A stretch of 64,000 bases of DNA from Bifidobacterium sp. B4142 (GTDB lineage: Bacteria > Actinomycetota > Actinomycetes > Actinomycetales > Bifidobacteriaceae), in NCBI RefSeq assembly GCF_026537325.1, contig NZ_JAFNMJ010000001.1, positions 62,001-126,000 on the forward strand, given 5' to 3'. The notes beneath the pieces were generated by a model. It did no database searches. It was not told where the DNA came from and was given only the letters and a program-made list of their open reading frames with translations. Numbering within the stretch: position 1 is the stretch's first letter; each line of letters opens with the position of its first letter. Below are positions 6,101-51,043 of the stretch, in pieces. The position numbers and the translations under genes are program-made.

Positions 6101-6157
6101 ATTGATCTTGAGCTCCATCCCTTCCAGATCGTGACCCTGCGGTTCCGCAGGTCCTGA
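3143..6157 (+). CDS. GH38 alpha-mannosidase
   Basis: A 1004-residue cytoplasmic glycoside hydrolase family 38 alpha-mannosidase. It hydrolyses terminal alpha-mannose from oligosaccharides by a retaining, metal-dependent mechanism. The catalytic domain starts near residue 255 with GHAHIDSAWLWP (metal ligands His262 and Asp264). The nucleophile is expected at Asp374 in WLPDSFGYSG. The C-terminal beta domains follow from about residue 640. There is no signal peptide, so the substrate must be imported. The start is the TTG at 3143 because AAGGAGG lies 7 bases upstream; the first in-frame ATG, at 3170, has no such site. The length is normal for bacterial long-form GH38. It sits beside a decayed beta-mannosidase and sugar ABC transporter, which suggests a former mannose-glycan (N-glycan-like) locus. 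The precise linkage specificity cannot be read from the sequence. Confidence 0.95.
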   Translation: MGFTREEKVMWRLDRLLDQHLQNALYRHTCPVSIESWDVAGEPVDFQTAKQAEYRPMSVGDPWGTAWDTWWLHVTGQVPAEWAHEAGTRPELVVDLGRIGLGPGFQAEGLVRRPDGTVIKAVEPFNQWVPVPEPGQPCEFYIEAASNPQISNGGSFHPTELGNEGVGREQGIYRLQRLELGLLDLQVWNLIQELKVLEGLLHEVDPTRTRYANILDAIEAALNSIDPNDVAGGAGRARQCLAEVLSAPATKGHTVYAVGHAHIDSAWLWPLRETPRKVARTFSNAVELADEYPDFIFAASSAQQYQWLKDSEPNIYEGVRRKIRSGQFVPVGGMWVESDANLPGGESLVRQFLQGGRFFQEEFGITSHVAWLPDSFGYSGAFPQIARLAGMDYFLTQKISWNDTDTFPFHSFMWQGIDGTEIFTHFPPADKYNSDASPADVARSEKNYTEKGKGASSLLLYGWGDGGGGPTREMVVATELQENLEGGPRVLMTSPETFFRQAKEEMKDPPRWVGELYLELHRGTATSQAATKSGNKRSESLLRQAEWWASQAAILCGVPYPYEELQEIWRKVLLYQFHDILPGSAIAWVYAEVQRSDRKIWAQLEGIIDRSLKALVGSGPVQLEANAGPLSQEGVRAGAVSAPGSTAGGQARRDGDDTVLENDRVSFRIDHKGHVVSAVDRASGREVIDPAVPANVLRLFIDAPAHWDAWDIDKTYQDMELPGAQVETTTLTDQGTVIVSGAIGQSTFSQELSLDDDTDALVIRTHVDWKESDRLLKLSFPTNLYTKESANEIQFGHLTRPITENTSWEQARFEAAAQRWVHIQEGDFGVSLANCTNYGHDIHQFALPDGRPGTRIQISLLRAPHFPDPRADLGEHDFTVALGVGTDIRRAIRMGYRLNVPVRRVMGAHQVDPLVEVDGQDVLIESVKLAEDRSGDLVVRLYESAGARSRARLAACFDWSGVDEVGLMEVPCDAVQPAIRSKGEDGIDLELHPFQIVTLRFRRS

Positions 6158-6167
6158 ATCAAGTGAA

Positions 6168-6203
6168 GGTGCCGTCCGGCAGATTGCCTGACGGCACCTT
6201 TCG
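6168..6203 (+). terminator. Rho-independent terminator after the GH38 gene
   Basis: AAGGTGCCGTC and GACGGCACCTT form a perfect 11-bp stem with a 13-base loop, 11 bases after the alpha-mannosidase stop codon. Only a short T run follows. The arms end in AA/TT, so it may act in both directions. Confidence 0.8.
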
Positions 6204-6281
6204 CAACCCGCCTGTCAGATTGCCGGCCGGTCCCACCTGGACATCCCCAGGACCGGGCCGAGTGTCAGATCGGGGTCCAGT

Positions 6282-7377
6282 ATGCCGTTGGCAGCCCCGA
6301 GGCGGCGATGCAACATCGCTCTCATGGCTTTGCAAGGTTCCACACCTTGGCAACTGACCTCATTGGCTTCTTCGCGCGTGCCCATTTTGGCGCTCGCAGC
6401 CAGCGGAGCCTCGTTGGTGAACCCCTATCTGTTGGTCCGTCCCCTGTACGATTGGGAGACGTCGCAGTTCCTGACCGGCAGGCAGCCTTTCATTGCTGGC
6501 CACCAGCTTGTCTTCTGGGAGGCAGGGATTTCGCGCGGGGTATTGCTGTCCTTGCTCGATACCCTGCTGACCGTCCGGATCATCAGCAGAATCAGTCCTG
6601 TGAAATACTTTCGGATCGCGATTATTCTCCCAAAAACCACAGGTTTGGCGCGACGTATCGCCGCCTTCTTTTATGCCTGTTTGTGGCATTGGCGATCATG
6701 CTGATGCGGATTATGCAGGTTCGGACCATATCTGATGAGCAACTGGTCCGTTTACACACTGCGGCACTCATCCTGCCCATCGCCATGGGCAGCACTTTCG
6801 GTTTCGTGCTCCTGCTGGCCGCGATCTGCTTGGCAGGTTCCTCCCTGCTGGGCACGGTCACCAGCGGCTAGACCAGGTCTATCGCTCTTCGCAAGTTCTC
6901 ATGGCTGATTGCTTGTCGGCAAGCCAACGCCCGCATGCGCAGCCTCAGCACTACGGTCATGCCGCTGGTCATAGGGGTTCCCTGCTGATGATGACCGCTT
7001 CCTTTTACTAGACCAGTGCCGAATACAGTCGTTTGCTGCGTTTCAACCTGGATGTCAGCAGCTCTGATTTCTCCATGCTCATTACGCTCTTAGGCCTTGC
7101 GCTGGTCGCACGCTGGCTGGGGTATGCGCCGGATACCTGATTTCAGCCCATGGTCGAAGCCCGGATCTATCTCTCATTTCGATTGCTGGTGCGGACCCGA
7201 ATCAACGCGAGCTCAAGCCCCCTCTCGAAGGGTTCATCATGGCAACTACCGCCGTTCTGGCATCCTTCATCTCCAGCCTCCTGCCGGGAATGGCCTACGC
7301 TGTCGGATTTCGCAAGGTCTTCGGCGCTGCCAGCATGGCATACCTTGGGCATCCTCGGAATGCGGTGGGGGGTGCGA
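6282..7377 (+). pseudogene. FtsX-type ABC transporter permease remnant
   Basis: Hydrophobic pieces in several frames look like one decayed permease. SLVNPYLLVRPLYDWETS, GVLLSLLDTLLTVRIISR and KYFRIAIILPKTTG lie in one frame (6360-6650). MRIMQVRTISDEQL and ILPIAMGSTFGFVLLLAAI lie in a second (6700-6870). NARMRSLSTTVMPLVIGV is near 6930-6985, FNLDVSSSDFSMLITLLG near 7040, and MATTAVLASFISSLLPG near 7235-7290. The last pieces resemble the FtsX/MacB-type permeases of antimicrobial-peptide exporters. No ATPase is found. At least four frame changes and internal stops make it non-functional. The subfamily is inferred; the membrane character and decay are directly visible. Confidence 0.6.
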
Positions 7378-7384
7378 GAAGGGC

Positions 7385-8465
7385 ATGGCAACCAACCTAT
7401 TCGAGCTGTTGAGCAATCAGTGTTTGACCAGATTTGTCATGCCTCTGCTGAGCCTGGTTTATTATACGCTTCTCTATGTCAGCGCCCCCACCTTCCCTCC
7501 GGTCTGGGCCGGGAACATGCCTTTATCTATTGGGAAGATGGTCATCAGCCTGATCGGACTCCCGTGTTCGTGTATGCTGTACTGAAGTAGGCAGCTTCCC
7601 CTGTTCATCACGACCATGGACGCCTTGAGATATACATCGGTCTGTCATTTGTCACCTCGGACGATAGCTTTGTGATTCCCCTGGTAGGCGCTCTTTATTT
7701 CTGCATCTGTTTATCATCAGCACCTAGGATTGCGGCAGGTGTGGGTGAGTCAGTCGCGGCCGTCAGTCTGGTCACCTTCAACGCGCATGCCGGGCACATG
7801 CTCTTTCTGGAATGGTCGGCCCGGATGGCTGTTATCATGGCTGTCAGGTCCTACCGGATTCAGCGCGAGATGCAGCAGCGCATCAACTCTGAGATAAAGG
7901 GATCGGGCTATAACAGGTGCCCAGGTGGCAGCGGAGTTGCACGATAGCGTGGGCCATGACTTCACCGCGATTATCGCGCTGACTCAGGGATTCGCTGACT
8001 CAGTTGAGGTCAAAGAGCAGCTATGGTTTCAGGCCGCACACGCTCAATGAGCTCGACACCGTGATCGCCCATGCCCGCGCGGTTGGTCTGGCTGTCGTGT
8101 TTACTAAAACATGGCATCAGCGGCATGAACCCAGACAGGACAGCCTCTGCTTCATTGTCAGCAGGGAGGCAATCACCAACACGCTCCGGCACGCCTCAGA
8201 CCCGTACCATCGTTCTCTCTCGTGACTATGAGCAGGACGGCACCCTCCGCGCATCAGAATCCACGACGATGGGCATGGGGATGAGCATGGGCAAGTCTTG
8301 GGCGATCAGAAACCGATCATTCATAATCATCAAGGAGCGGGACTCAAACAGATAAGCAAGCAATGCCGACTGGTGGGAGGGAGTTTGAGTAGTGGACCGA
8401 GCGAGAACGGGGGATGGGCGGTAGAAGCCATCCTGCCTGGTACTGGCCAAGAAGGAAGGCAACAT
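7385..8465 (+). pseudogene. NarL-type sensor histidine kinase remnant
   Basis: The ATG at 7385 opens a 66-codon membrane segment (LTRFVMPLLSLVYYTLLYV) that ends in a stop. A second membrane piece, LVGALYFCICLSSAPR, lies at 7678-7900. The HisKA_3 phospho-acceptor box AAELHDSVGHDFTAIIAL is readable near 7925-7980, and the N box REAITNTLRHA at about 8164-8196 in a different frame. The order of transmembrane part, H box and N box is that of LuxR/NarL-associated histidine kinases. Stops and frame changes between every block rule out a working kinase. It lies between the permease remnant and a response-regulator remnant, as in peptide-sensing transporter modules. Confidence 0.75.
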
Positions 8466-8467
8466 TC

Positions 8468-8782
8468 ATGATTGACCTGATTCTGGTCGATGACCCTGTG
8501 CTCCTTCGCAAGGGCCTGGTCGATCAAGGTTGACCCTGATCTACAGGTCGTCAGACAAGCTTCCAATGGTCAGGAGGCGGTGATTCTGCTTCGATAGATG
8601 AAAGCAGCCGATTAGCCATTGCCTCAGGTGATCCTTATGGACGTTCGTATGCCCGTGATGGATGGCATCAGCGCCACGGCAGCCATTTCGGGCACCGTGA
8701 GGATGAAAGCCAGGAGAAATGATGGCTTGCGGCATGATGACATCACCAGTGCGATGAGGTCGATGCTTGGGTCCGGGCACTA
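8468..8782 (+). pseudogene. NarL-type response regulator remnant (receiver domain)
   Basis: The ATG at 8468 begins MIDLILVDDPVLLRKGL, the usual start of a NarL-type receiver domain, but meets a stop after 20 codons. Further on, QVILMDVRMPVMDGISATAA (about 8623-8682) carries the phospho-acceptor aspartate region in another frame. The rest of the receiver and the HTH domain are not recognisable. With the preceding kinase remnant it forms a dead two-component system. The 3' boundary is a guess. Confidence 0.75.
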
Positions 8783-8999
8783 GAACTCGAATACAAAGAG
8801 GACGCTTTTTCTAGCAAACGAATGCTCACTATACTGAGTTTCCGCTATTCGTTTACGTGGATACTATCTCAGTCGAACAGGTTCCCTCTGGAATTCCTCG
8901 GTTCGGTTGCTTGCCGCCCGTATATGATGAGATGCAGCCGCTGTCCAGACCACAGTCGGACAAAGAGCGGCCAAGCGATCGGCAAGAGGGAGGCGGACC

Positions 9000-9578
9000 A
9001 TGGGAATCCTTCTGGTGAGGATGGACCAGCCTGGGGCGGTGGATGCCGACCAGGTCTGGCAGTATCTGAAGGCTTGTCGCGCGCAGCCAGAGGATGAAGC
9101 GGCTGGGCTCGGCCCCTTGGAGAACTGCCGCAGCTTGGATGAGGTTCGTCGGTCAGGCTTGCCCGAGGTGGCTCGGCAGGCGCGTGGCGATGATCTGCCC
9201 CTGGGATTTGTGCCCGCCTTCCAGTTCGCTGCATTTGAATCCAGCGGCGAACTGGTGGGGATGATCCAGCTGAGGTTGCAGCTCACAAAGGCGCTGTTGC
9301 GCATGGGCGGCAACATCGGCTATTCGGTCCGTCCGGATCGTCGTCGGCAAGGCTATGCCGGGATGATGCTGGACGATTGTCTGCGATGGGCTGCCGCCCT
9401 GGGCATGAGCCGGGTCCTGATCACTTGCGCCGGATCGAATCTGGCCAGTCGGCGGGTCATTCTTTCGCGTGGCGGGCAACTGGAGAATGCGCTTCCCAGC
9501 AGCTCTGGTCAGCCAGTAGAAAGGTATTGGTTCGATTTGCCTGACCAAACGAGCAGCCCGATGAACACGCCAGTGTGA
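9000..9578 (+). CDS. GNAT family N-acetyltransferase
   Basis: A 192-residue acyltransferase of the GNAT superfamily, which transfers an acetyl group from acetyl-CoA to an amine. The acetyl-CoA-binding motif A is seen as YSVRPDRRRQGYAGMMLDD around residues 108-126, preceded by the beta strand MIQLRLQLTKALLRMGG. The ATG at 9000 is preceded by AGGGAGG with suitable spacing. It stands alone after the decayed region and before the membrane protein/ftsY pair. The substrate cannot be inferred; related proteins of this architecture are usually annotated only as GNAT. Confidence 0.85.
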   Translation: MGILLVRMDQPGAVDADQVWQYLKACRAQPEDEAAGLGPLENCRSLDEVRRSGLPEVARQARGDDLPLGFVPAFQFAAFESSGELVGMIQLRLQLTKALLRMGGNIGYSVRPDRRRQGYAGMMLDDCLRWAAALGMSRVLITCAGSNLASRRVILSRGGQLENALPSSSGQPVERYWFDLPDQTSSPMNTPV

Positions 9579-9633
9579 AAGAGACCGATAGATTCCTCGT
9601 GTCTTAGCGCGTCTGCGGGGTTCTTCTGAGAGA

Positions 9634-10176
9634 ATGGCAGATATGGTCTGGCTGATTGTCCTGGTATGGGTGCTGGTGGTGATGGCATTCATTGTATTCG
9701 TCATGCGTTTGGCGCTGGGCGAGTCCCAGGACCGTGCCTTCTCTCAGTCTCTGAATGAGCGTGTGCGCAGGGCCGCGCGCCGTCAGCAGGAGCGAGAGAA
9801 TAAGCTGCCGCGGATTGCAGGAGGGCATCTGTCTTTTGCCCCTGGCTCGGGCGAGGATGTGCCAACTGCTGAAGACCTTGCACATCCCTATCCGGTTTAT
9901 GTCAACTCCTCCTCTGTGGTGGAGGTTCGAGGTACGCTGGCCTCCGATTCCACGGACGAGATAAATCTGCCCCGGCCCCCAAGCGTCGATTCTGCATCGT
10001 CGGCTAGCCCGAGACAAAAGAAGAATGCCGTGCCGTCGGTCTCTGCTGCCTCTGAGCCTCCGGCCCCCAGGAACTCCGCATCACGTTCTTCCAGCCCTGA
10101 GCCCTCGCGTCCGCAGCGGCGGGAGCCTCAGCCCATCACCTTCGACGTCATGCCTTCAGTCAAGAGCGGTTCGTAG
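9634..10176 (+). CDS. Single-pass membrane protein of unknown function upstream of ftsY
   Basis: A 180-residue protein. Residues 4-27 (VWLIVLVWVLVVMAFIVF) form one N-terminal membrane anchor. The remainder is polar and low in complexity, rich in Ser, Pro, Arg and Glu and probably disordered, with a basic stretch RRAARRQQERENK just inside. I do not recognise a domain. It precedes ftsY in the same orientation with an 79-base gap, so the two may be co-expressed. The start is the ATG at 9634, which has only a weak upstream purine run. Confidence 0.65.
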   Translation: MADMVWLIVLVWVLVVMAFIVFVMRLALGESQDRAFSQSLNERVRRAARRQQERENKLPRIAGGHLSFAPGSGEDVPTAEDLAHPYPVYVNSSSVVEVRGTLASDSTDEINLPRPPSVDSASSASPRQKKNAVPSVSAASEPPAPRNSASRSSSPEPSRPQRREPQPITFDVMPSVKSGS

Positions 10177-10255
10177 ATGGAAACGAGTCATCCGAGCGAA
10201 AAGTGACCGCTGGTGATGACTGTCCGTGTCCCTTTTCGCCTTTAGGCTGGTACCT

Positions 10256-11551
10256 ATGACAACACAGCAGCTCCTTATTCTTATTGTGGTGCTGATCGTT
10301 CTGGTGCTGGCGGTGGTCGGCATTCTGGTGGCGGTCCGTAAGCGCCGGTCCCAGGGGGATTCCGTGCGTCCCGGCAGGGCGCAAGAGCCTGGTAATGGCC
10401 ACTCTTCTTTGCCCCCGAAATCGGCGACGGCTGCGGCAGAGAGCCGAGCTGGAGGCCAACTTGGTGCCTCCCCAGCAGCTTCATCAGGTGACCAGGCTGT
10501 CCAGTCCGTCTCCTCCGCATCGCCTTCTTCTGCGGGTTCAGTCGATTCAGAGGCGTCCGCCCAGTCTTCCTCAACCGACCAGGCAGCACAGTCAGCGCAG
10601 GAGGAGCCGGTTCACCCGGAGGCCTCTGCATCCCGCATGACCAGGCTCAAGGCCAGGCTGGCCAAGAGCCCCAACCCCTTCGGAAAGGCCCTCTTTGCCA
10701 TTTTGACCAAGGACCATCTGAGCGAATCCGACTGGGAAGATGTTGAAGACACCCTGCTCATGGCGGATGTGGGCGCCGAGGCCAGCGAACAGCTGGTGAA
10801 ACAGTTGCGCGACGATGCCCGGATTACCGGGCAGAAGGACCCCGCAGCAGTGCGTCGTGGCCTTCGTCAGCGCTTGATCGATCTGATCGACCCCAGCATG
10901 GACCGAACTCTGGTGGCTGCCCGGCCTCAGGCCAACAGGCCGTCGGTCGTCATCATGGTGGGCGTCAACGGGACAGGCAAGACCACCACGGCGGGCAAGC
11001 TGGCCAGGCTCTTCGTCGCCGATGGCAAATCGGTGGTCATGGGTGCCGCCGACACCTTCCGCGCCGCAGCCGCTGACCAGCTGGAGACCTGGGGTGGCAG
11101 GGTGGGCGTGCCCGTGGTCCGCAGCGACCGCGACGGTGCCGACCCGGCCTCGGTGGCTTTCGAAGCCGCGGAACGGGCCAAAAATGATCAGGCAGATGTA
11201 CTCATTGTGGACACAGCCGGGCGTCTACAGAACAAGGCCAATCTGATGGATCAGCTGGGTAAAATCCGGCGGGTGATCGAGAAGAACCTGCCCGTGGACG
11301 AGGTTCTGCTGGTCCTGGATGCCACCACCGGGCAGAACGGGATGATCCAGGCCCAGGTCTTCGCCCAGGCCATCGGGGTCACGGGCATCGTCCTGACCAA
11401 GCTGGACGGCTCAGCCAAGGGCGGCATCGTCGTTTCTGTCCAGAGCGAGCTGGGTGTGCCTGTCAAGCTGGTTGGGCTGGGCGAGGGACCCGATGATCTG
11501 GCCGTTTTCGATCCCGAGTCCTTTGTCGACGGCATTCTGGGAGACGAGTAG
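10256..11551 (+). CDS. ftsY: Signal recognition particle receptor FtsY
   Basis: FtsY is the membrane receptor GTPase that docks SRP-ribosome complexes at the Sec translocon. Residues 5-24 form an N-terminal membrane anchor, then an acidic/Ser-rich linker of about 110 residues, then the N domain (from about 125). The G domain has the P loop GVNGTGKTTTAGKLARL, the DTFRAAAADQL motif, DTAGRLQNK (G3) and TKLDGSAKGG (G4/G5). An in-frame GTG at 10226 would add ten residues, but the ATG at 10256 gives the conventional membrane-anchored start. The SRP RNA gene is in the same window near 62811. Confidence 0.95.
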   Translation: MTTQQLLILIVVLIVLVLAVVGILVAVRKRRSQGDSVRPGRAQEPGNGHSSLPPKSATAAAESRAGGQLGASPAASSGDQAVQSVSSASPSSAGSVDSEASAQSSSTDQAAQSAQEEPVHPEASASRMTRLKARLAKSPNPFGKALFAILTKDHLSESDWEDVEDTLLMADVGAEASEQLVKQLRDDARITGQKDPAAVRRGLRQRLIDLIDPSMDRTLVAARPQANRPSVVIMVGVNGTGKTTTAGKLARLFVADGKSVVMGAADTFRAAAADQLETWGGRVGVPVVRSDRDGADPASVAFEAAERAKNDQADVLIVDTAGRLQNKANLMDQLGKIRRVIEKNLPVDEVLLVLDATTGQNGMIQAQVFAQAIGVTGIVLTKLDGSAKGGIVVSVQSELGVPVKLVGLGEGPDDLAVFDPESFVDGILGDE

Positions 11552-43770: not shown

Positions 43771-44811
43771 TCAGTCCTGTTTGGCCTTTGCTCGGCTCGA
43801 AGCTTGTGAGGCTTGTCTGCCCGATCCCCTCTGCTGTTGATCCAGATCGAGTATTCCCTCGGCCGTGTCGCGGTCGGTGGCCAGTGCCGAGATAAGCCCG
43901 GCCCGCAGACAGGCGAGGATGCTGGCAACTTTTTGCGGTCCCCAGGCTACGCCTATGACCAGAGGGATCCGCTTGAGACGTTCGAATTCAATCGATATAG
44001 TGCGTTCGCACAGGCTGGTTTGGATGTGGCGACCCTGTGCATCGATGTGGTGTCCGCAGATGTGCCCCACAGCCTTGAGCTCGGTCACCTCCTTGACGAA
44101 AGCCGCATTCTCGTAGTCCTTGAAAATGTGTCCTGACCTTCCCTCCTTGACGGACCCGACTCCTACCACCGCAACATCGGCATGTCCGCCCAGGGACAGG
44201 GTGTCGGCGATCTGGCGTTCTTTGCGCATGGCTTCAGCCACAGGAGTTGAAGACAGGATCATGGGCACTGGCAGCGTCGAGTAGCTGCCGCCCAATCGTT
44301 GGGCCAGCATGCGGCATATCTCCGGTGAATCCGTCATGGGATTGGTCGGCGACAGGGAGCCGATCATCTGCACGACCTTGGACTTTGCCCAGTTTTGCAG
44401 GGGAACTTCACGAACCGTGTAGGCGACCGCGTTGCCATTGGAGACGGTTATCAAAGAGTCGGGTCTGGTCTGCTCAACCAGGAGAGCCGCCGCGCTTCGG
44501 GGTACGACATCATACCCGGTGCATCCTTGGGGTGGCTCCGAGACCCGAGCGCAACGGAGGTTGAATTGTCGGATCAACCTGGACTCCAGGTCTTCAAGCC
44601 GTTCCAGTGGATTCTCAATGGAGATCTTCACCAGTCCTCGCTCTTGGGCTTCCTTCAGCATCCGGGAGACGGAGGGACGGGAATAGCCTGTCTCTGTGGC
44701 GATCTGGGACTGCAGCATGTGGTCCTGGTAGTACATGCGGGCTGCGCGAAGAAGCAGCTGGACCCGCTTGCGGGCATCCGAACTGGTCATCATCTGTAAA
44801 TCGCTGAACAT
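43771..44811 (-). CDS. SorC-family sugar-responsive transcriptional regulator
   Basis: A 346-residue regulator. The N-terminal helix-turn-helix (QSQIATETGYSRPSVSRML, about residues 38-56) is followed by a SorC/CggR-type sugar-phosphate-binding domain (ITVSNGNAVAYTV, GSLSPTNPM, AVVGVGSVKEG, CLRAGLISALATD). It is divergent from the lactonase-led sugar-acid operon and is probably its effector-controlled regulator and its own. The start is not certain: ATG 44811 has no ribosome binding site and lies inside a candidate operator; ATG 44793 or 44790 would also keep the whole HTH. Confidence 0.92.
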   Translation of the reverse strand: MFSDLQMMTSSDARKRVQLLLRAARMYYQDHMLQSQIATETGYSRPSVSRMLKEAQERGLVKISIENPLERLEDLESRLIRQFNLRCARVSEPPQGCTGYDVVPRSAAALLVEQTRPDSLITVSNGNAVAYTVREVPLQNWAKSKVVQMIGSLSPTNPMTDSPEICRMLAQRLGGSYSTLPVPMILSSTPVAEAMRKERQIADTLSLGGHADVAVVGVGSVKEGRSGHIFKDYENAAFVKEVTELKAVGHICGHHIDAQGRHIQTSLCERTISIEFERLKRIPLVIGVAWGPQKVASILACLRAGLISALATDRDTAEGILDLDQQQRGSGRQASQASSRAKAKQD

Positions 44812-44817
44812 ATGTAC
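44805..44817. promoter_or_regulatory. Candidate SorC operator 1
   Basis: TGAACATATGTAC, centred on CATATG. The same 13 bases occur inverted at 44925-44937. The site overlaps the first possible start codon of the SorC gene, a position fitting autoregulation. Confidence 0.55.
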
Positions 44818-44907
44818 ATTTTATCAGAATCAATGAAAAACTGCTTATCTGCTCCTGAAGGTCGAAAAATACTTGTTTCCAAGGGTAAGAATGCGATCTA
44901 TATGCGT

Positions 44908-44937
44908 TTGAACTCGTAGTTCAAGTACATATGTTCA
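44908..44937. promoter_or_regulatory. Candidate SorC operators 2 and 3
   Basis: Two adjoining sites: the dyad TTGAAC-TCGTA-GTTCAA (44908-44924) and GTACATATGTTCA (44925-44937), the exact inverse of operator 1. The half-site TGAAC/GTTCA thus occurs four times in the intergenic region. They lie about 120-150 bases upstream of the first gene of the sugar-acid operon. Confidence 0.55.
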
Positions 44938-45057
44938 TCAATATCCTTGTTGTTTATTGACTGCTCACATAGTCTGTCTCCTGTCAAAGGCACCGAATGG
45001 AAAAGCCTAAAGACCGGTGCCGCGAAGTCGCAGAGCACAAACAACAAAGGAGTTCAC

Positions 45058-46047
45058 ATGGCATTCGCACGAACCATTCTGGGTGATGTCGATCCGAGCA
45101 CGCTTGGCGTAGTCAACAGCCACGACCATCTGATCCGGGTGGGAGCCGGTGAGGTCTACCTGGACAAGGACCACCAACTGGATTCAGTCGAGAAGGCAGA
45201 GACCGAGGCCGGCTATTTCGCCAAGGCCTCGCTGAACTGGAGCAAGCAGGGCGGCACCGTGGTGGATATGTGCCCCATCAACTGCGGCCGTGACATCGAG
45301 AAGCTGGCCGAGGTGGCCCGCTCGGTGGAGAACCTGCAGATCATAGGGGCCACCGGCTTCCACCGTGAGCATGTCTACCTGGAGACCCAGTCCCACTGGA
45401 TCAACCGCTACAGCGTGGATCAGATCGCCGACCTGGTCATCGCCGATATCCGTGAGGGCATCGACCGCAACGACTACACCGGCCCCCTGGTGGATCGCAG
45501 CCCCTATAAGGCAGGTGTTATCAAGATCGGCACTGCTTACGGCGAGATCACGCCCTTCGAGCACAAGTGCATGGAGGCTGCCGCCAAGGCGGCCATCGAA
45601 ACCGGCGCTCCCATCAACACGCACACCACCTATGGAACCTGTGGTCTGGAACAGGCCCAGACCCTGATTGGACTGGGGGTCCCCGCCGACCAGATCGCCA
45701 TCGGCCACATCCAGCGCAATGCCGATGTCTACTACCTGGAGGAGATCCTGGATCTGGGCGTTTACCTGGAAATCGACGGCACCAACAGGATCAAGTATCA
45801 GCCCGATTCCAACAGGATGATGGAGCTCAAGGCTTTCAAGAAAGACGGCTACGAGGACCGTATCCTCCTGGGCACGGACTCGGGCAAGCGCTCCTACCAG
45901 AAGGTCTACGGCTCTGTGAGTGGCGTGGACTACAACCCGGCAGTGGACGGCCCCCGCATGATCGCTGAAGGCTTTGATCCCGACTACGTGGACAAGCTGC
46001 TCATCCGCAACGCCCACAACTTCTTCTCCTTCCGTAAGGAGGCCTGA
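45058..46047 (+). CDS. Phosphotriesterase-family lactonase-like hydrolase
   Basis: A 329-residue member of the phosphotriesterase (COG1735) amidohydrolase family. The binuclear metal site is indicated by the N-terminal HDH in VNSHDHLIRVGAG (about residues 22-26), the lysine in KIGTAYGEIT (usually carboxylated), NTHTTYGTCG, IGHIQRNAD, and the Asp in LLGTDSGKRS. Characterised relatives in sugar operons hydrolyse phosphorylated furanose lactones. Here it heads the operon and probably opens a sugar-acid lactone, replacing UlaG of the ascorbate route (inference). The ATG at 45058 has AAAGGAG five bases upstream. The frame extends to 44947 but lacks coding character there. Confidence 0.88.
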   Translation: MAFARTILGDVDPSTLGVVNSHDHLIRVGAGEVYLDKDHQLDSVEKAETEAGYFAKASLNWSKQGGTVVDMCPINCGRDIEKLAEVARSVENLQIIGATGFHREHVYLETQSHWINRYSVDQIADLVIADIREGIDRNDYTGPLVDRSPYKAGVIKIGTAYGEITPFEHKCMEAAAKAAIETGAPINTHTTYGTCGLEQAQTLIGLGVPADQIAIGHIQRNADVYYLEEILDLGVYLEIDGTNRIKYQPDSNRMMELKAFKKDGYEDRILLGTDSGKRSYQKVYGSVSGVDYNPAVDGPRMIAEGFDPDYVDKLLIRNAHNFFSFRKEA

Positions 46048-46052
46048 GCGCG

Positions 46053-46727
46053 ATGGCAGCAGACAAGACCCTGGAACGCCCCCAGCTGCAGATCGCGCTG
46101 GACACCTTTGATATGCCCTCGGCCCTGAGGCCTCTGAATGCGGCCGTGAGCCAGGTGGATGTCATCGAGTGCGGAACCGTCCTGATCATCGCCGAAGGGC
46201 TGAGAGCCGTGCGCGAGATCCGTGCCCTCTATCCCAATAAGACCATCCTGGCGGATGTCAGGATCGCCGAGGCCGGTGCGGTCATCTCCCGCGCCTGCTT
46301 CGAGGCGGGTGCCAGCTGGGTCTCGGTGGTCGCCGGGGCCAGCATGACCACGGTCGAACAGGTGGTGAAGGTGGCCCAGGAGTCCGGCGGCGAGGTCCAG
46401 ATTGAGCTGGGCGAAACCTACGATCCCGAACAGGCGCGCGAATGGCGGCGACTTGGAGCCACCCAGGTCATCGTCCACCGTTCTCGTGATGCTGAAGCGG
46501 CCGGAAAGCTGACCTGGGGGGAGGACGACAAGGACCGCATCCGTCAGCTGCATCAGATGGGCTTCAAGGTCACTGTGACCGGCGGGGTCACGGCCAAGGA
46601 CCTGCCCTTCTTCCAAGGAGTTCCCGTTGGAGTGGTGATTTCGGGTCGCGGCATTGTCAAGGCTGACGACCCCCTGGCCGCTGCGACCGAGCTGCGGGAG
46701 ACCATTGGCAGGGTGTGGCCGCAATGA
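46053..46727 (+). CDS. 3-keto-L-gulonate-6-phosphate decarboxylase-like protein with altered active-site motif
   Basis: A 224-residue member of the orotidine-5'-phosphate-decarboxylase superfamily, closest to UlaD/SgbH, which decarboxylate 3-keto-L-gulonate 6-phosphate to L-xylulose 5-phosphate. Conserved pieces: VDVIECGTVLI, VQIELGE, HRSRDAEAAG, GFKVTVTGGVT and VVISGRG. The catalytic DxKxxD motif (DAKIAD in E. coli UlaD) reads DVRIAE here (residues 68-73), with Lys to Arg and Asp to Glu. This may change substrate or rate. It sits 5 bases after the lactonase gene and overlaps the 3-epimerase gene by 4. Confidence 0.9.
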   Translation: MAADKTLERPQLQIALDTFDMPSALRPLNAAVSQVDVIECGTVLIIAEGLRAVREIRALYPNKTILADVRIAEAGAVISRACFEAGASWVSVVAGASMTTVEQVVKVAQESGGEVQIELGETYDPEQAREWRRLGATQVIVHRSRDAEAAGKLTWGEDDKDRIRQLHQMGFKVTVTGGVTAKDLPFFQGVPVGVVISGRGIVKADDPLAAATELRETIGRVWPQ

Positions 46728-47593
46728 GTGGCAGTGTCACCCTGGGCATCTATGAGAAGGCCCTGAAGTCCCCCGCCGAGCCGGATGATTGGGATGCGTT
46801 CATGTCCCAGGTGGTGGCCGATGGGTTCACCTTTATGGATCTGTCCATTGACGAAAGCGACAAGCGGATGGCTCGCTTGGACTGGACGGCTGCCCAGGCT
46901 TCCGCCTTCCGTCAGGCCGCTGACCGCCAGGGCGTCCGGGTCGGAGGGATCTGCCTGAGCTGCCACCGCAAGGTGGGCCCCGGCTCCGCCGATCCGGCTG
47001 TCCGCCGTCAGGCCTATGAGATCTTCCTCAAGGCGATCGATCTGGCTCATGAGGCGGGCATTCCCCTGATCCAGGTAGCTGGTTACTACGCCTACTACGA
47101 GGACCCTGATCCTGACCAGCGCGCCAGGTATGTGGAGGTTCTGGCCAGGGCGGCTGAGTATGCGGCCCAGGCCGGCGTCATGCTGGGTATAGAGAATGTG
47201 GACGGCAATGACATCACCTCCATCACCAAGGGTCTGTCCATCTGCGATCAGGTCGGGTCCTCCTGGCTGAGCATGTACCCGGATATCGGCAACCTTTATG
47301 AGCAGGAGCTGGATGCCGTGGCTGAGCTCAGGGCTGGAGCCGGCAGAATGCTGGCCATCCACGTCAAGGATGTGCTCCCAGGGCAACCCCGTCGCATCAC
47401 CATGGGCGAGGGCTGTGCCGACTTTCCTGTGGCTTTCGCCGAGCTGGCCCGGCAGTCCTGGTCGGGGCGGATCATGCTGGAGATGTGGAACGATGATTCG
47501 GACCAGGCCGATCAGATCGTCATGAATGCAAGGGAGAAAGTGGAAACCTGGTTGCGAGGGGCCGACATAGATGTGCTCGATCCCAAAGGCTGA
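46724..47593 (+). CDS. L-xylulose-5-phosphate 3-epimerase (UlaE-like)
   Basis: A 289-residue TIM-barrel epimerase converting L-xylulose 5-phosphate to L-ribulose 5-phosphate. It aligns by eye over its length with E. coli UlaE: TLGIYEKALKSP at the start, DLSIDESDKRMARLDW, GICLSCHRK, IPLIQVAGYYAYYED, YPDIGNLYEQ, AIHVKDVLPG, GEGCADF and LEMWND. Metal ligands Glu, Asp, His and Glu are in these blocks. The ATGA overlap with the decarboxylase indicates translational coupling. Confidence 0.92.
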   Translation: MSGSVTLGIYEKALKSPAEPDDWDAFMSQVVADGFTFMDLSIDESDKRMARLDWTAAQASAFRQAADRQGVRVGGICLSCHRKVGPGSADPAVRRQAYEIFLKAIDLAHEAGIPLIQVAGYYAYYEDPDPDQRARYVEVLARAAEYAAQAGVMLGIENVDGNDITSITKGLSICDQVGSSWLSMYPDIGNLYEQELDAVAELRAGAGRMLAIHVKDVLPGQPRRITMGEGCADFPVAFAELARQSWSGRIMLEMWNDDSDQADQIVMNAREKVETWLRGADIDVLDPKG

Positions 47594-47599
47594 GGTAAA

Positions 47600-47654
47600 G
47601 GTCGCAGCCGTCACGGTTGCGACCCGGGGGTGGTTGTGCCGGTCCTCCACCCCC
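47600..47654 (+). terminator. Two hairpins between the epimerase and kinase genes
   Basis: GGTCGCAGCCGT / ACGGTTGCGACC (47600-47624) is a near-perfect dyad; GGGGGTGG (47626-47633) pairs with CCACCCCC (47647-47654). No T tract follows, so they may attenuate or stabilise the upstream message rather than fully terminate. The 212-base gap may also hold a second promoter for the kinase gene. Confidence 0.45.
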
Positions 47655-47805
47655 TTGGCATCGGCAGGGAGGCAATGATGCCAGCGGTCGCCCTTGATGG
47701 GTCGACCCGATCGGTGCGAGTTTGAATGTGACAGGTCGTAATACGGACTGAAGCGGACGTCGTGGTCCATCCTAGAAAAGCGACCGTGTAGACAAGGAGC
47801 AAGTG

Positions 47806-48762
47806 ATGGCAGAACATGCATATGACCTTTCGACCATAGGAGAGGGGCAGATCAGGCTCACGGTCAGGAGGGGGGAGCGGCTGATGAACGCCCGGTCGGT
47901 CCTGATGAATCCCGCCTGTTCCGAGGCCAATGTGGCTGGAGTCCTAGCCCAGCTTCAGCGCAGGACCCTGTGGACCTCCTCACTGCCAGAGGGGGACTTG
48001 GGCGAATACGTCCTGAGCGAGTACAGGTCCGTGGGCGTTGACCTGAGCACCATGGTCCGCAAGCCGGCCAGCCGGATCGCCCTCTACTTCATGGAGCCGG
48101 GCGAGCCCCCTATGCCGGCCAACGTCATCTATGACCGCGAGTACACCCCCTTCAGATCGACGGGGATCGATGATTACGACTGGGACCGGATGCTGGACAC
48201 CCGCCTGCTTTTCCTGACCGGGATCACGGCGGCCCTGACCGATACCACAGCCCAGGTGGTGACCTATGCGGCCGAACAGGCGGACAAGCGCGGCATCGAC
48301 ATCGCCCTTGACGTGAACTTCCGCAGCAAGCTCTGGACCGGTGACCAGGCCAGAAAGGTCCTGGAGCCCATTGCCCACAAGGCCCGCATTCTCTTCTGCT
48401 CCATCAAGGACGCCAAAAGCGTCTTCGGCATCGAGGGGACCGGCGAGGAGGTTTGCGAACAGCTCTACCAGCGCTTCGGCAACGAGTACATCGTTTCCAC
48501 CAATCACCTGGATGGTCCTTACCTGAGGACCTCCAAAGGAATCAAGAAATACGTCACCACCACGGTTCCGGTGGTGGACCGTCCCGGCGCCGGGGACTCC
48601 TTCGTGGCTGCCACTCTCCATGGCTTCCTCTCCGATGATGTGGAGTGCGGTGTCAGATGGGGGCAGCGGGCCGCCGAGTACGCCCTGACGCATATGGGCG
48701 ATCTGACCCGTATCCGCGCCCAGGAACTTGATATTCCGCTGGGCGGGGATATCAATCGCTGA
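47806..48762 (+). CDS. PfkB-family sugar/sugar-acid kinase
   Basis: A 318-residue ribokinase-family kinase. The N-terminal GEGQIRLTVRRGE and NPACSEANVAGVLAQLQRRT correspond to substrate-binding segments of 2-keto-3-deoxygluconate kinase-like proteins. The second PfkB signature VDRPGAGDSFVAATLHGFL (about residues 255-273) holds the catalytic Asp and anion hole. NVIYDREYTPF is also KDG-kinase-like. In this operon, which lacks a PTS, it is the likely enzyme that phosphorylates the imported sugar acid. The ATG at 47806 follows AAGGAGC; a GTG one codon earlier is possible. Confidence 0.9.
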   Translation: MAEHAYDLSTIGEGQIRLTVRRGERLMNARSVLMNPACSEANVAGVLAQLQRRTLWTSSLPEGDLGEYVLSEYRSVGVDLSTMVRKPASRIALYFMEPGEPPMPANVIYDREYTPFRSTGIDDYDWDRMLDTRLLFLTGITAALTDTTAQVVTYAAEQADKRGIDIALDVNFRSKLWTGDQARKVLEPIAHKARILFCSIKDAKSVFGIEGTGEEVCEQLYQRFGNEYIVSTNHLDGPYLRTSKGIKKYVTTTVPVVDRPGAGDSFVAATLHGFLSDDVECGVRWGQRAAEYALTHMGDLTRIRAQELDIPLGGDINR

Positions 48763-48774
48763 CCGTTCCTTCAC

Positions 48775-48825
48775 GATCCAGGCCCGTCGCAGCCTTCTCC
48801 AAGGTCGGAGAAGGCGGCCTGGATC
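48775..48825. terminator. Large two-part hairpin between the kinase and MFS genes
   Basis: An outer stem GATCCAGGCC (48775-48784) / GGCCTGGATC (48816-48825) encloses an inner stem GCCTTCTCC (48792-48800) / GGAGAAGGC (48807-48815). It starts 12 bases after the kinase stop. There is no T tract, so partial termination or mRNA 3'-end protection is more likely than full stop. Confidence 0.6.
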
Positions 48826-48894
48826 CTCAGGTCAGACCATACCGGGGTCGGGCCGCCATCATCATGATCATCCGAGAAAGAAAAGCAACCCATT

Positions 48895-50256
48895 ATGAGC
48901 GATACACATGTCACACAGGCCGGGGAGCTGCTGACCGCTTACGAGCAGATAGACTCTCGTCCCCTGACCGGACATCAGAAAAGCATCATCGGCCTGGCCA
49001 TAGCCGGCAACATATCCGAATTCTTCGATATGTTCCTGATCGGTTTCGTGGTCTCCCTCCTGACTTCGGCCTGGCACCTGACCGGGGTCTCCGCAGGAAT
49101 CATCCTGGCCTGCTCCGGGCTGGGCACAGTCATCGGATCCATCCTCTGGGGGCGTTTGGCCGATCGCTTCGGCCGCAAGCATGCCTTCCAGTGGTGTGTC
49201 CTCTGCTTCGTGGTCTTTACGGCCCTGTCGGTCTTCCTGCCTGACGGTGCCTGGATCCTGCTGGCCATCCTGCGCATAGGCGTGGGCATCGGCGTAGGCG
49301 GCCTTAACATTATCTCCATTCCCTACGTCCAGGAGTTCGTCCCGACCAGGCAACGCGGCATGCTCTCCGGCTTGGCCTCGGTCTTCATTCCTATGGGTCT
49401 GCTCCTGGGATCCGTCTCGCAGAGCCTGATCGGCGACAATTGGCGCGTGCTGGTGGCCCTGGGCGTTATCCCCGTCCTCCTTCTCTTCTGGCTGGCGACG
49501 GTGCCTGAGTCCCCCCGTTTCTACCAGAGTGTGGGACGTGACGACGATGCCCGCAAGGCCTTGGCCTGGGCTCTGGAGCTTCCTGTGGACCAGGTCGGTG
49601 CCCTGCCCGAGGTTGAGCAGGAACAGAAGGCCAGCTATCGTCTGCTCTTGTCCAAGCATTTGAAGCCGCTGGTCATCATTTCTGTCGGATCCTTCTGCTT
49701 TATTCTGGGTTCCTTCGCCATCCAATCCTGGGGTCAGACGCTGATGAAGGATGCCTTCGGTTTTTCAACGCAAATGGTGGCCTACCTGTTCATGGGCGTC
49801 TCCGTGGCCGACTGCATAGGCAGATTCGGCTCTGCCTGGCTGGCTGACATCATCGGCCGGCGTTGGACCATGTTCTCCTTCGGCATCATCGGGGCCCTGG
49901 GTTGCTTCTATGCAGCTTTCTTCCACAATTCCGGCTGGCAGTTCTACATCGCCGTCCTGGTCATCATGACCTTCGCAGACGGCGTCTTCGGCATCCTCAA
50001 CGCTTTCGGTGGCGAGCAGTTCCCCAACGATGTTCGCTCTACCGGACTGGGATTGGGATACGGCATCGGTGCCACAGCCAAGATAGTAGGCCCTATATTC
50101 ATGGGGCTCCTGGTGGGCGGCGACTATGTCTCCCAGCACATCAACATCGGCGTTGTCACCACGGCATTCACCTTCTTCGGTGTCTGCCTGGTCATCGGCG
50201 CTGTTATATACCTCTTTGCCCAGGAGACCAAGGGCAAGGATCTGGAAAGCCTGTGA
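48895..50256 (+). CDS. MFS sugar/sugar-acid transporter
   Basis: A 453-residue major facilitator with 12 predicted helices. Motif A occurs twice in the pattern GRLADRFGRKHAF (after helix 2) and ADIIGRRWTMFS (after helix 8), with PESPRFY between the halves and PETKG-like QETKGKD at the end, as in the sugar-transporter subfamily. It is the only transporter of the SorC-linked operon and so should carry the unphosphorylated substrate in by H+ symport. The ribosome binding site is weak (GAAAGAAAAG). Confidence 0.9.
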   Translation: MSDTHVTQAGELLTAYEQIDSRPLTGHQKSIIGLAIAGNISEFFDMFLIGFVVSLLTSAWHLTGVSAGIILACSGLGTVIGSILWGRLADRFGRKHAFQWCVLCFVVFTALSVFLPDGAWILLAILRIGVGIGVGGLNIISIPYVQEFVPTRQRGMLSGLASVFIPMGLLLGSVSQSLIGDNWRVLVALGVIPVLLLFWLATVPESPRFYQSVGRDDDARKALAWALELPVDQVGALPEVEQEQKASYRLLLSKHLKPLVIISVGSFCFILGSFAIQSWGQTLMKDAFGFSTQMVAYLFMGVSVADCIGRFGSAWLADIIGRRWTMFSFGIIGALGCFYAAFFHNSGWQFYIAVLVIMTFADGVFGILNAFGGEQFPNDVRSTGLGLGYGIGATAKIVGPIFMGLLVGGDYVSQHINIGVVTTAFTFFGVCLVIGAVIYLFAQETKGKDLESL

Positions 50257-50295
50257 GGACGGGCAGCAGGGTCTGCGCACACAGGTAAGCAAACC

Positions 50296-50325
50296 GGGCC
50301 GGCTTTTCACAGGGAGGGTCGGCCC
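50296..50325 (+). terminator. Hairpin after the MFS gene
   Basis: GGGCCGGC (50296-50303) pairs with GTCGGCCC (50318-50325) with one mismatch, 40 bases after the MFS stop and 25 before the aldolase-type gene. No strong T tract follows. It could lower expression of the last gene. Confidence 0.45.
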
Positions 50326-50350
50326 CATATTGGGAATGGTGGTGGTTCTT

Positions 50351-51043
50351 ATGACGTCCTTGGCTGATTTTCCTGATGAGGTACGTGTTGAAGTGGGGCT
50401 GGTCCGTGAGCATGTTGCCGCCCTGCATGACCAGCTGATCAAGTGGGGGCTGGTGGTGTGGACGGCCGGGAACGTCTCGCAGCGTCTGCATTCGGCCGAC
50501 TTGCTGGTGATCAAGCCGTCCGGGGTGCGCTATGAACAGTTGACGCCGGAATCAATGGTGGTTACGGATCTGGAAGGGCATGTGGTGGACGGATCTGCCA
50601 CCCCCTCCTCGGATGTGTTTTCACATGCCTACATCTACCGGCATATGCCTGAAGTGTTTGGCGTGGTGCATACGCATTCGACCTTTGCGACGGCCTTTGC
50701 TGCAGTGGGCCGGTCAATTCCATGCGTATTGACGATGATGGGTGACGAGTTCGGTGGTCCGGTGCCGGTGGGGCCCTTCGCCCTGATCGGTTCAGACCAG
50801 ATAGGTCGTGGGGTGGTCGAGACCCTGGCGGAACATCCGGGCAGCCCTGCGGTGCTCATGCGCAATCACGGCCCCTTCACTGTCGGTGCTGATGCTGAGG
50901 CTGCGGTTAAGGCGGCGGCGATGACGGAGGAAGTGGCGCGTACGGTGTGGGCTGCCGAGCAGATCGGTACGCCAGTGCCCCTGTCCGACGAGGATGTGGC
51001 GAGTCTGAACGACCGTTACCAGCACGTGTACGGCCAGCACTGA
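50351..51043 (+). CDS. Class II aldolase/epimerase, AraD/UlaF-like
   Basis: A 230-residue zinc-dependent class II aldolase-family protein. Zinc ligands are expected at the two His of VVHTHSTFATAF (about residues 98-109) and the His in RNHGPFTVG (about 168). TAGNVSQRL and KPSGVRYEQLTPESMVV form the phosphate pocket. Its length equals L-ribulose-5-phosphate 4-epimerases (AraD, UlaF, about 230), and the operon produces L-ribulose 5-phosphate, so 4-epimerisation to D-xylulose 5-phosphate is the best guess; an aldolase activity cannot be excluded. The ATG at 50351 was chosen over an in-frame ATG at 50336. Confidence 0.85.
   Translation: MTSLADFPDEVRVEVGLVREHVAALHDQLIKWGLVVWTAGNVSQRLHSADLLVIKPSGVRYEQLTPESMVVTDLEGHVVDGSATPSSDVFSHAYIYRHMPEVFGVVHTHSTFATAFAAVGRSIPCVLTMMGDEFGGPVPVGPFALIGSDQIGRGVVETLAEHPGSPAVLMRNHGPFTVGADAEAAVKAAAMTEEVARTVWAAEQIGTPVPLSDEDVASLNDRYQHVYGQH

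What the first reader, a model, noticed from the sequence alone, without database searches (positions are those of the whole stretch)
43771..51043. SorC-controlled operon that looks like a PTS-free version of the ascorbate/ketogulonate pathway
Seen: divergent SorC regulator, then PTE-family hydrolase, UlaD-like, UlaE-like, PfkB kinase, MFS transporter and AraD/UlaF-like genes. Known: the enteric ula pathway uses a PTS (UlaABC), the lactonase UlaG, then UlaD, UlaE and UlaF to D-xylulose 5-phosphate. Inferred: here import (MFS) and phosphorylation (PfkB) are separate, and a phosphotriesterase-fold enzyme replaces UlaG. The end product would enter the phosphoketolase shunt. Candidate substrates are L-ascorbate, 2,3-diketo- or 3-keto-L-gulonate, or another sugar-acid lactone. 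I know of no described pathway with this combination.
Basis: partly seen in the sequence, partly recalled or inferred. Interest (0 to 1): 0.78.

Follow-up and report, generated by a model that had tools for sequence, protein, structure and literature searches.

The report
PTS-free ascorbate-type sugar-acid operon
A bee-gut Bifidobacterium carries a conserved seven-gene operon that looks like the bacterial vitamin C breakdown pathway rebuilt with a separate importer, a separate kinase and a different ring-opening enzyme, and its key decarboxylase-like enzyme has unusual changes at active-site positions that are normally fixed.

Summary
In detail: a divergent SorC regulator faces PTE-family, UlaD-like, UlaE-like, PfkB, MFS and AraD/UlaF-like genes. 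The lactonase gene recurs in 31 of 189 Bifidobacteriaceae genomes, 30 of them with UlaD, PfkB and MFS beside it, and in 8 other genomes of the order plus 4 named ones. Only part is new: mycoplasmas pair the same lactonase clade with UlaABC PTS and UlaDEF, and a Salmonella yia-type cluster has MFS, lactonase, FGGY kinase and UlaDEF. Best reading: MFS imports an ascorbate-level lactone, PfkB phosphorylates it, the PTE lactonase opens it, UlaD decarboxylates it to L-xylulose 5-phosphate, UlaE and UlaF give D-xylulose 5-phosphate. L-ascorbate is the most economical substrate but unproven; PfkB would then be an ascorbate kinase. New variant of a known kind.

The parts
43771..44811 (-). SorC/DeoR-type sugar-responsive regulator, divergent from the operon
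   Evidence: PF04198 196 bits; a SorC match in 42 of 43 loci tallied, in the 43rd on a neighbouring stretch
44805..44818 (.). Operator 1, TGAACATATGTACA, overlapping the regulator's start
   Evidence: exact ACATATGT core near the regulator's start in 27 of 37 divergent regions examined, some of them the same genome twice; 18-nt inverted repeat with operator 2; 4 strand-wise matches (2 places) in the window against 0.5 expected, reached by 1 of 100 shuffles
44924..44937 (.). Operator 2, inverted copy upstream of the PTE gene
   Evidence: 5 distinct places with at most 1 mismatch in the whole genome, two of them here
45058..46047 (+). PTE-family phospho-lactonase-like protein (stands where UlaG would)
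   Evidence: PF02126; best solved match 3msr/3ovg, E 2e-59; sister clade of two Mycoplasma phospho-furanose lactonases, support 0.998
46053..46727 (+). UlaD-like protein with DxKxxD changed to D68-x-R70-x-x-E73
46724..47593 (+). UlaE-like L-xylulose-5-P/L-ribulose-5-P 3-epimerase
   Evidence: NF009688 and NF009689 over cut-off
47806..48762 (+). PfkB kinase of the 2-keto-3-deoxygluconate-kinase type
   Evidence: PF00294; best solved match a KDG kinase, 2afb
48895..50256 (+). MFS importer of the organic-acid/sugar symport type
   Evidence: PF07690 and PF00083; TIGR00895 191 bits, below its cut-off
50351..51043 (+). UlaF/AraD-type L-ribulose-5-P 4-epimerase; start inferred
   Evidence: NF005123 over cut-off; 80% identical to a second copy in the same genome, which passes the same model and lies next to an FGGY kinase gene

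Best explanation
This is a SorC-regulated, ATP-driven version of the ascorbate-type (ula) catabolic route. MFS imports a six-carbon lactone at the oxidation level of L-ascorbate (most likely L-ascorbate itself) as an anion. PfkB phosphorylates its C6 hydroxyl. The PTE-family lactonase opens the phospho-lactone. The UlaD-like enzyme decarboxylates the resulting 3-keto-hexonate 6-phosphate to L-xylulose 5-phosphate. UlaE and UlaF turn that into D-xylulose 5-phosphate, which phosphoketolase splits. Shown: gene content, conservation, phylogeny, retained and changed active-site residues, paired operator-like repeats. Inferred: the order of steps, the chemistry and the substrate.
For: (1) Interchange. 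The lactonase clade's nearest relatives in my tree sit with UlaABC PTS + UlaDEF in mycoplasmas; here MFS + PfkB stand in that place, and no UlaA match (E 1e-12) was found in 43 of 43 loci. 11 of the 31 bifidobacterial carriers have no EIIC-GAT PTS match anywhere in the genome. (2) Of five phosphate-binding residues recalled for MS53_0025, three are identical and two exchange K and R (RKYKY) in 42 of 42 copies read, with metal ligands HHKHHD in 42 of 42: it should act after the kinase. (3) End steps: UlaF is 80% identical to another L-ribulose-5-P 4-epimerase-family protein of the genome; in G138 the only homologue sits with an L-arabinose isomerase. UlaE is replaced in 8 of 43 loci by a second-type 3-epimerase that passes the same two subfamily models. 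That points to L-xylulose-5-P, L-ribulose-5-P, D-xylulose-5-P. (4) No dehydrogenase sits inside the operon, so the imported compound is probably already at the 3-keto-hexonate/ascorbate level. (5) Phosphoketolase present. (6) The kinase keeps the recalled KDG-kinase positions Y,Y,R,R,D in 41 of 43 loci; in the other two the gene is split, fitting an acidic substrate.
Against: UlaD lacks the Lys and second Asp of the suprafamily motif in 42 of 42 copies, and all 12 copies from outside the bifidobacteria also have Lys for the catalytic His, so decarboxylation is not assured and the substrate may differ from 3-keto-L-gulonate 6-P. The characterised mycoplasma lactonases were reported on pentono-lactone 5-phosphates (passage in PMC10971088), not on ascorbate 6-P. 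A KDG-kinase-like kinase could act on an open-chain acid, with the lactonase earlier or only a repair enzyme. 20 of the 31 bifidobacterial carriers do have an EIIC-GAT PTS elsewhere (one only a fragment), in G149 about 4 kb past the operon. Two genomes, G139 and the decayed G112, have no UlaE found with either query. No expression or biochemical data.
Confidence: 0.47

Rival explanations
1. Same chain, but for another L-threo hexulosonic acid or its lactone (for example a C2 epimer or a natural ascorbate derivative), with the UlaD active-site changes reflecting that substrate.
For: DxRxxE is fixed in 42 of 42 copies while UlaD (10 of 10) and HPS-like (15 of 15) controls keep DxKxxD. A second, diverged operon of the same make-up exists in two genomes (L042, L070), so more than one substrate is likely served. 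C2 stereochemistry is lost on decarboxylation, so UlaE and UlaF would still be needed.
Against: No common natural compound of this kind is as obvious as ascorbate; the enzyme may simply tolerate Lys to Arg.
Confidence: 0.27
2. Yia/Sgb-like route: an open-chain keto acid (3-keto-L-gulonate or diketogulonate) is imported and phosphorylated by PfkB, and the lactonase acts before the kinase or only hydrolyses lactones that form by themselves.
For: The kinase keeps the recalled KDG-kinase acid-binding positions. A Salmonella plasmid cluster has MFS, SMP-30 lactonase, FGGY kinase and UlaDEF.
Against: The PTE protein keeps a phosphate-binding pocket. No further gene such as a YiaK-type reductase sits inside the operon.
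Confidence: 0.15
3. The OMPdecase-fold protein is not a decarboxylase here but an aldolase/synthase (HPS-like) or another activity, and the pathway is not ula-like.
For: The catalytic Lys is replaced in 42 of 42 and the catalytic His in 12 of 42. The second-type operon's UlaD has Ala, as in HPS, where KGPDC has Thr169. KGPDC and HPS are known to be promiscuous (passages in PMC5980557).
Against: The operon's UlaD keeps the KGPDC-specific Thr and Glu112 rather than HPS Asp in 42 of 42. The operon clade is sister to the UlaD controls, joint support 0.98. UlaE and UlaF imply L-xylulose-5-P.
Confidence: 0.11

Closest known systems
Enteric ula regulon (UlaABC, UlaG, UlaD, UlaE, UlaF), as described in PMC3219644 (passages)
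   Same: UlaD-, UlaE- and UlaF-type steps to D-xylulose 5-phosphate, and a lactonase before them
   Different: no PTS in the locus; kinase + MFS instead; PTE-fold lactonase instead of UlaG; SorC instead of UlaR; DxKxxD changed in UlaD
Mycoplasma operon: phospho-furanose lactonase + UlaABC + UlaDEF (L054, L055)
   Same: lactonases form one clade with the window's (support 0.998); same UlaD/E/F set
   Different: PTS import; UlaD with DxKxxD
yia/sgb-type ketogulonate cluster (Salmonella plasmid L096)
   Same: no PTS annotated in the cluster; MFS importer, separate lactonase, separate kinase, UlaD/E/F
   Different: FGGY kinase instead of PfkB, SMP-30 instead of PTE, includes YiaK, IclR regulator; UlaD with DxKxxD
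KDG-kinase branch of PfkB kinases (2afb, 1v19)
   Same: substrate-side Tyr, Tyr, Arg, Arg and catalytic Asp positions kept (positions recalled, mapping)
   Different: passes no NCBIfam kinase model (194 bits against a cut-off of 440); no KDPG aldolase in the operon

Membership tests
ula (PTS-type ascorbate) operon | UlaABC PTS in the operon | tested here: not met
   no UlaA match at E 1e-12 in 43 of 43 loci; one UlaC-like match in G149 lies outside the operon
ula (PTS-type ascorbate) operon | UlaG lactonase | tested here: not met
   the lactonase-like gene of the operon is PTE-family; the rest of the genome was not searched for UlaG
ula (PTS-type ascorbate) operon | UlaD, UlaE and UlaF homologues together | tested here: met
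   In-locus across the 43 loci: UlaD 42, an UlaE type 38, UlaF 39
KGPDC (3-keto-L-gulonate-6-P decarboxylase) | Asp-x-Lys-x-x-Asp catalytic motif | tested here: not met
   DxRxxE in 42 of 42; reference positions D62, K64, D67 from PMC5980557 Table 1 (passage)
KGPDC (3-keto-L-gulonate-6-P decarboxylase) | Glu33, Glu112, Arg139, Thr169 | tested here: met
   kept in 42 of 42, Glu33 unread in one copy
KGPDC (3-keto-L-gulonate-6-P decarboxylase) | His136 | tested here: inconclusive
   His in the window and all 30 bifidobacterial copies read; Lys in all 12 others
KGPDC (3-keto-L-gulonate-6-P decarboxylase) | decarboxylase activity | not testable with these tools
   needs enzyme assay
Phospho-furanose lactonase (NF045706) | curated score cut-off | tested here: not met
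   250.5 against 630; a mycoplasma member scores 686
Phospho-furanose lactonase (NF045706) | binuclear metal ligands and phosphate-binding residues | tested here: met
   HHKHHD 42 of 42; phosphate site RKYKY, 3 of 5 identical and 2 conservative to mycoplasma; reference residues recalled
KDG kinase | curated score cut-off of a KDG-kinase model | tested here: not met
   best 194 of 440 bits
SorC-regulated operon | divergent SorC gene with paired palindromic operators | tested here: met
   binding itself not tested

The most novel reading that the evidence does not exclude
The PfkB protein is a dedicated L-ascorbate 6-kinase, so that actinobacteria feed on vitamin C without a PTS, and the UlaD clade is a decarboxylase that has exchanged the suprafamily's catalytic Lys/Asp pair for Arg/Glu (and, outside bifidobacteria, His for Lys). 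A parallel operon with Arg/Arg serves a related acid.
Probability: 0.3. Interest if true: 0.75.

Novelty: new variant of a known kind. Interest (0 to 1): 0.55.

Why it matters
If true it adds an ATP-dependent, PTS-independent entry into ascorbate-type catabolism in bee-gut and other actinobacteria, and a kinase activity for which I found no record in the papers searched. The changed active-site positions also give a natural test of how far the OMPDC/KGPDC/HPS active site can change while keeping its reaction.

Tried and rejected
Rejected: D-threonate/L-erythronate-type (Otn) pathway. The UlaE protein scores 21.7 bits (cut-off 325) for 2-oxo-tetronate isomerase and UlaF 80 bits (cut-off 250) for 3-oxo-tetronate-4-P decarboxylase.

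Rejected: UlaD makes L-ribulose-5-P or D-ribulose-5-P directly. The idea came from three loci without UlaE and UlaF (G139, G140, G143), but G140 and G143 carry a second-type UlaE + UlaF elsewhere. In G139 one UlaF copy and no UlaE remain where G140 has UlaF-UlaE2-(LepA-like gene)-UlaF, as if a segment was lost. G102, also without UlaE in the locus, has a second-type UlaE elsewhere. So absence looks like loss or relocation, not a different product.

Rejected: Lys-to-Arg follows the lactonase type or absence of a PTS as such. Mycoplasma PTE operons and a kinase-type Salmonella cluster keep Lys.

Rejected: the EIIC-GAT PTS of the window's genome is a hidden ula system for this operon. It lies about 29 and 37 kb past the operon (two copies) near genes of the PBP, peptidase C69, FTHFS and aquaporin families, and the genome has only one UlaD match.

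Led nowhere: sigma-70 promoter scan (1 found against 2.4 expected); paper searches for this combination; structure prediction.

The kinase gene beside the second UlaF copy, called ribulokinase-like by eye, is only FGGY-family by search.
Full report
What is there. The seven genes are present and correctly recognised. The divergent SorC-type regulator is followed on the other strand by a PTE-family hydrolase, a UlaD-like protein (orotidine-decarboxylase fold), a UlaE-like epimerase, a PfkB kinase, an MFS transporter and an AraD/UlaF-like epimerase. Then comes a DUF5701 gene that is probably not part of the operon: among the loci compared it stays nearby only in the closest bifidobacteria. The window lies in an unnamed 2.2-Mb genome. 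Its nearest named kin by the kinase are Bifidobacterium species including B. mizhiense (99% identity), B. apousia, B. asteroides and B. mellis; that these are bee-gut bacteria is recalled.

Conservation. A profile of the PTE protein matched 31 of 189 Bifidobacteriaceae genomes at E 1e-40 and 32 of 396 genomes of the order at E 1e-30. In the order search 16 matches were strong (E below 1e-100): eight bifidobacterial genomes, already counted, and eight others, all of which carry the operon. Of the 16 weaker matches I read the neighbourhoods of seven: none has a UlaD match. A kinase scan of named genomes gave 12 loci, all with SorC, PTE, UlaD, PfkB and MFS, among them two Dermabacteraceae, Arachnia propionica and a Propionibacteriaceae MAG. 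I tallied 43 loci (the 31, the 8, and the 4 named ones just listed, which may repeat species): PfkB 43, MFS 43, SorC 42, PTE 42, UlaD 42, UlaF 39, an UlaE type 38 (30 like the window's, 8 of the second type), UlaA 0. The one locus without UlaD, G112, is decayed: a PTE fragment on the neighbouring stretch, no UlaD or UlaE, a damaged kinase. In G116 the kinase and in G030 the UlaD gene are split.

Replacements point to the end product. In eight loci UlaE is replaced by a second-type epimerase 35-39% identical to it, placed after the MFS gene; it passes the same L-ribulose-5-P 3-epimerase subfamily models. The window's UlaF is 80% identical to a second copy on another contig, which passes the same model and lies next to an FGGY kinase gene; in G138 the only UlaF homologue sits with an L-arabinose isomerase over cut-off. 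The operon UlaF of Dermabacteraceae is only 49% identical to the window's, so the bifidobacterial operon seems to have taken in an araD copy. Both changes keep the predicted steps L-xylulose-5-P to L-ribulose-5-P to D-xylulose-5-P. Phosphoketolase is encoded in the genome.

Lactonase. The best solved match is 3msr/3ovg, E 2e-59, recalled to be the Mycoplasma synoviae lactonase MS53_0025. [quoted passage not shown] the original paper is not held. In Mycoplasmopsis gallopavonis and Mesomycoplasma hyorhinis this gene heads UlaABC PTS, UlaD, UlaE and UlaF. The operon's PTE clade is sister to these two, support 0.998. Of five phosphate-binding residues recalled for MS53_0025, three are identical and two are K/R exchanges in 42 of 42 copies. 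So a phosphorylated lactone is the likely substrate, which puts the kinase before the lactonase. It does not pass the NCBIfam lactonase cut-off, so I call it lactonase-like.

Kinase and importer. The kinase is nearest KDG kinases. The residues aligned to the recalled KDG-binding Tyr, Tyr, Arg, Arg and catalytic Asp are kept in 41 of 43 loci; in two (G112, G116) the gene is split and the Asp was not read. It passes no kinase model. The MFS protein is nearest acid/proton and sugar symporters, below all cut-offs, which fits an acidic substrate but decides nothing. PTS elsewhere: 20 of the 31 bifidobacterial carriers have an EIIC-GAT match in the genome (one only a fragment), 11 have none. In the window's genome the two copies lie 29 and 37 kb past the operon, in G149 one lies about 4 kb past it; the neighbourhoods of the window genome's copies were read and have no UlaD, and in G102 and G104 an EIIC-GAT gene lies beside a second-type UlaE and an FGGY kinase.

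The unexpected point: UlaD. The orotidine/ketogulonate/hexulose-phosphate enzymes share Asp-x-Lys-x-x-Asp (D62, K64, D67 in E. coli UlaD; Table 1 of PMC5980557, passages). The window protein has Asp68-Val-Arg70-Ile-Ala-Glu73, and DxRxxE holds in 42 of 42 operon copies. The 20 copies in the tree form one clade (support 0.949), so this is one event kept over long divergence, not 42. Ten UlaD relatives (two mycoplasma, eight picked from the 40 listed rows of 195 plasmid records) and 15 HPS-like proteins all keep DxKxxD and the His136 equivalent. In the operon copies His136 is kept in the 30 bifidobacterial ones and is Lys in all 12 others; Glu33 (unread in one), Glu112, Arg139 and Thr169 are kept in 42 of 42. 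Two genomes (G104, G158) carry a second, diverged operon with the same six enzyme/transporter types, whose UlaD reads DxRxxR, with Ala for Thr169 as in HPS. In the tree it lies outside the operon + control group, and grouping the two Arg types has no support (0.42), so two separate changes are possible but not shown.

Regulation. Two inverted copies of TGAACATATGTACW lie between the regulator and the PTE gene. The core ACATATGT occurs near the regulator's start in 27 of 37 divergent regions, some of the same genome twice; eight of the other ten show look-alike palindromes by eye, and the remaining two are the second-type operons (look-alikes not scored). Genome-wide there are five places with at most one mismatch; two are here and one lies near the start of another SorC gene.

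Substrate argument (inference). UlaE and UlaF imply L-xylulose 5-phosphate as the decarboxylation product, hence a 3-keto-hexonate 6-phosphate with the L-threo end of ascorbate. No further gene sits regularly inside the operon (flanking genes were not searched for dehydrogenases), so the imported compound should already be at that oxidation level. A lactone at that level is, first of all, L-ascorbate. The active-site changes are the main reason for doubt. L-gulonate, L-galactonate and pentono-lactones do not meet these constraints.

Novelty. A PTE lactonase with UlaDEF, and a kinase + lactonase + MFS with UlaDEF, each exist elsewhere. The combination with PfkB and the altered UlaD I did not find in print (searches; open-licence library only). 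I rate it a new variant of a known kind.

Noticed in passing
L042 (G104) 3541-10600; L070 (G158) 3283-10702: Second, diverged operon with the same six enzyme/transporter types (PTE, UlaD, PfkB, UlaE; MFS and UlaF on the other strand) and another SorC; its UlaD has DxRxxR.
   Followed up: partly
L046 (G139) against L047 (G140), around the UlaF genes: G140 has UlaF-UlaE2-(LepA-like gene)-UlaF; G139 has one UlaF and lacks the stretch between, as if lost by recombination between the two copies.
   Followed up: partly
L037 and L052 (G112); L044 (G116); L033 (G030): Damaged copies of the operon: G112 has a PTE fragment, no UlaD or UlaE and a damaged kinase; G116 has a split kinase; G030 a split UlaD.
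   Followed up: no
L074-L083: A different bifidobacterial cluster: a distant PfkB beside an HPS-like protein with DxKxxD, with regulator- and transporter-like ORFs in most (by eye); function not worked out.
   Followed up: no
window 47594-47740, 48763-48894 and 50257-50350: Strong hairpins between the operon's genes (fold z-scores -2.95, -3.00 and -2.71); none was listed as terminator-like; conservation not checked.
   Followed up: no
G000:C1:889352-889365: A near copy of the operator lies near the start of another SorC-family gene in the same genome.
   Followed up: no
L126 and L127 (G102, G104): UlaE2 next to an FGGY kinase gene and near an EIIC-GAT PTS (in L127 also a 2-hydroxyacid dehydrogenase): perhaps a separate L-xylulose or ketogulonate type route in bifidobacteria.
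   Followed up: partly
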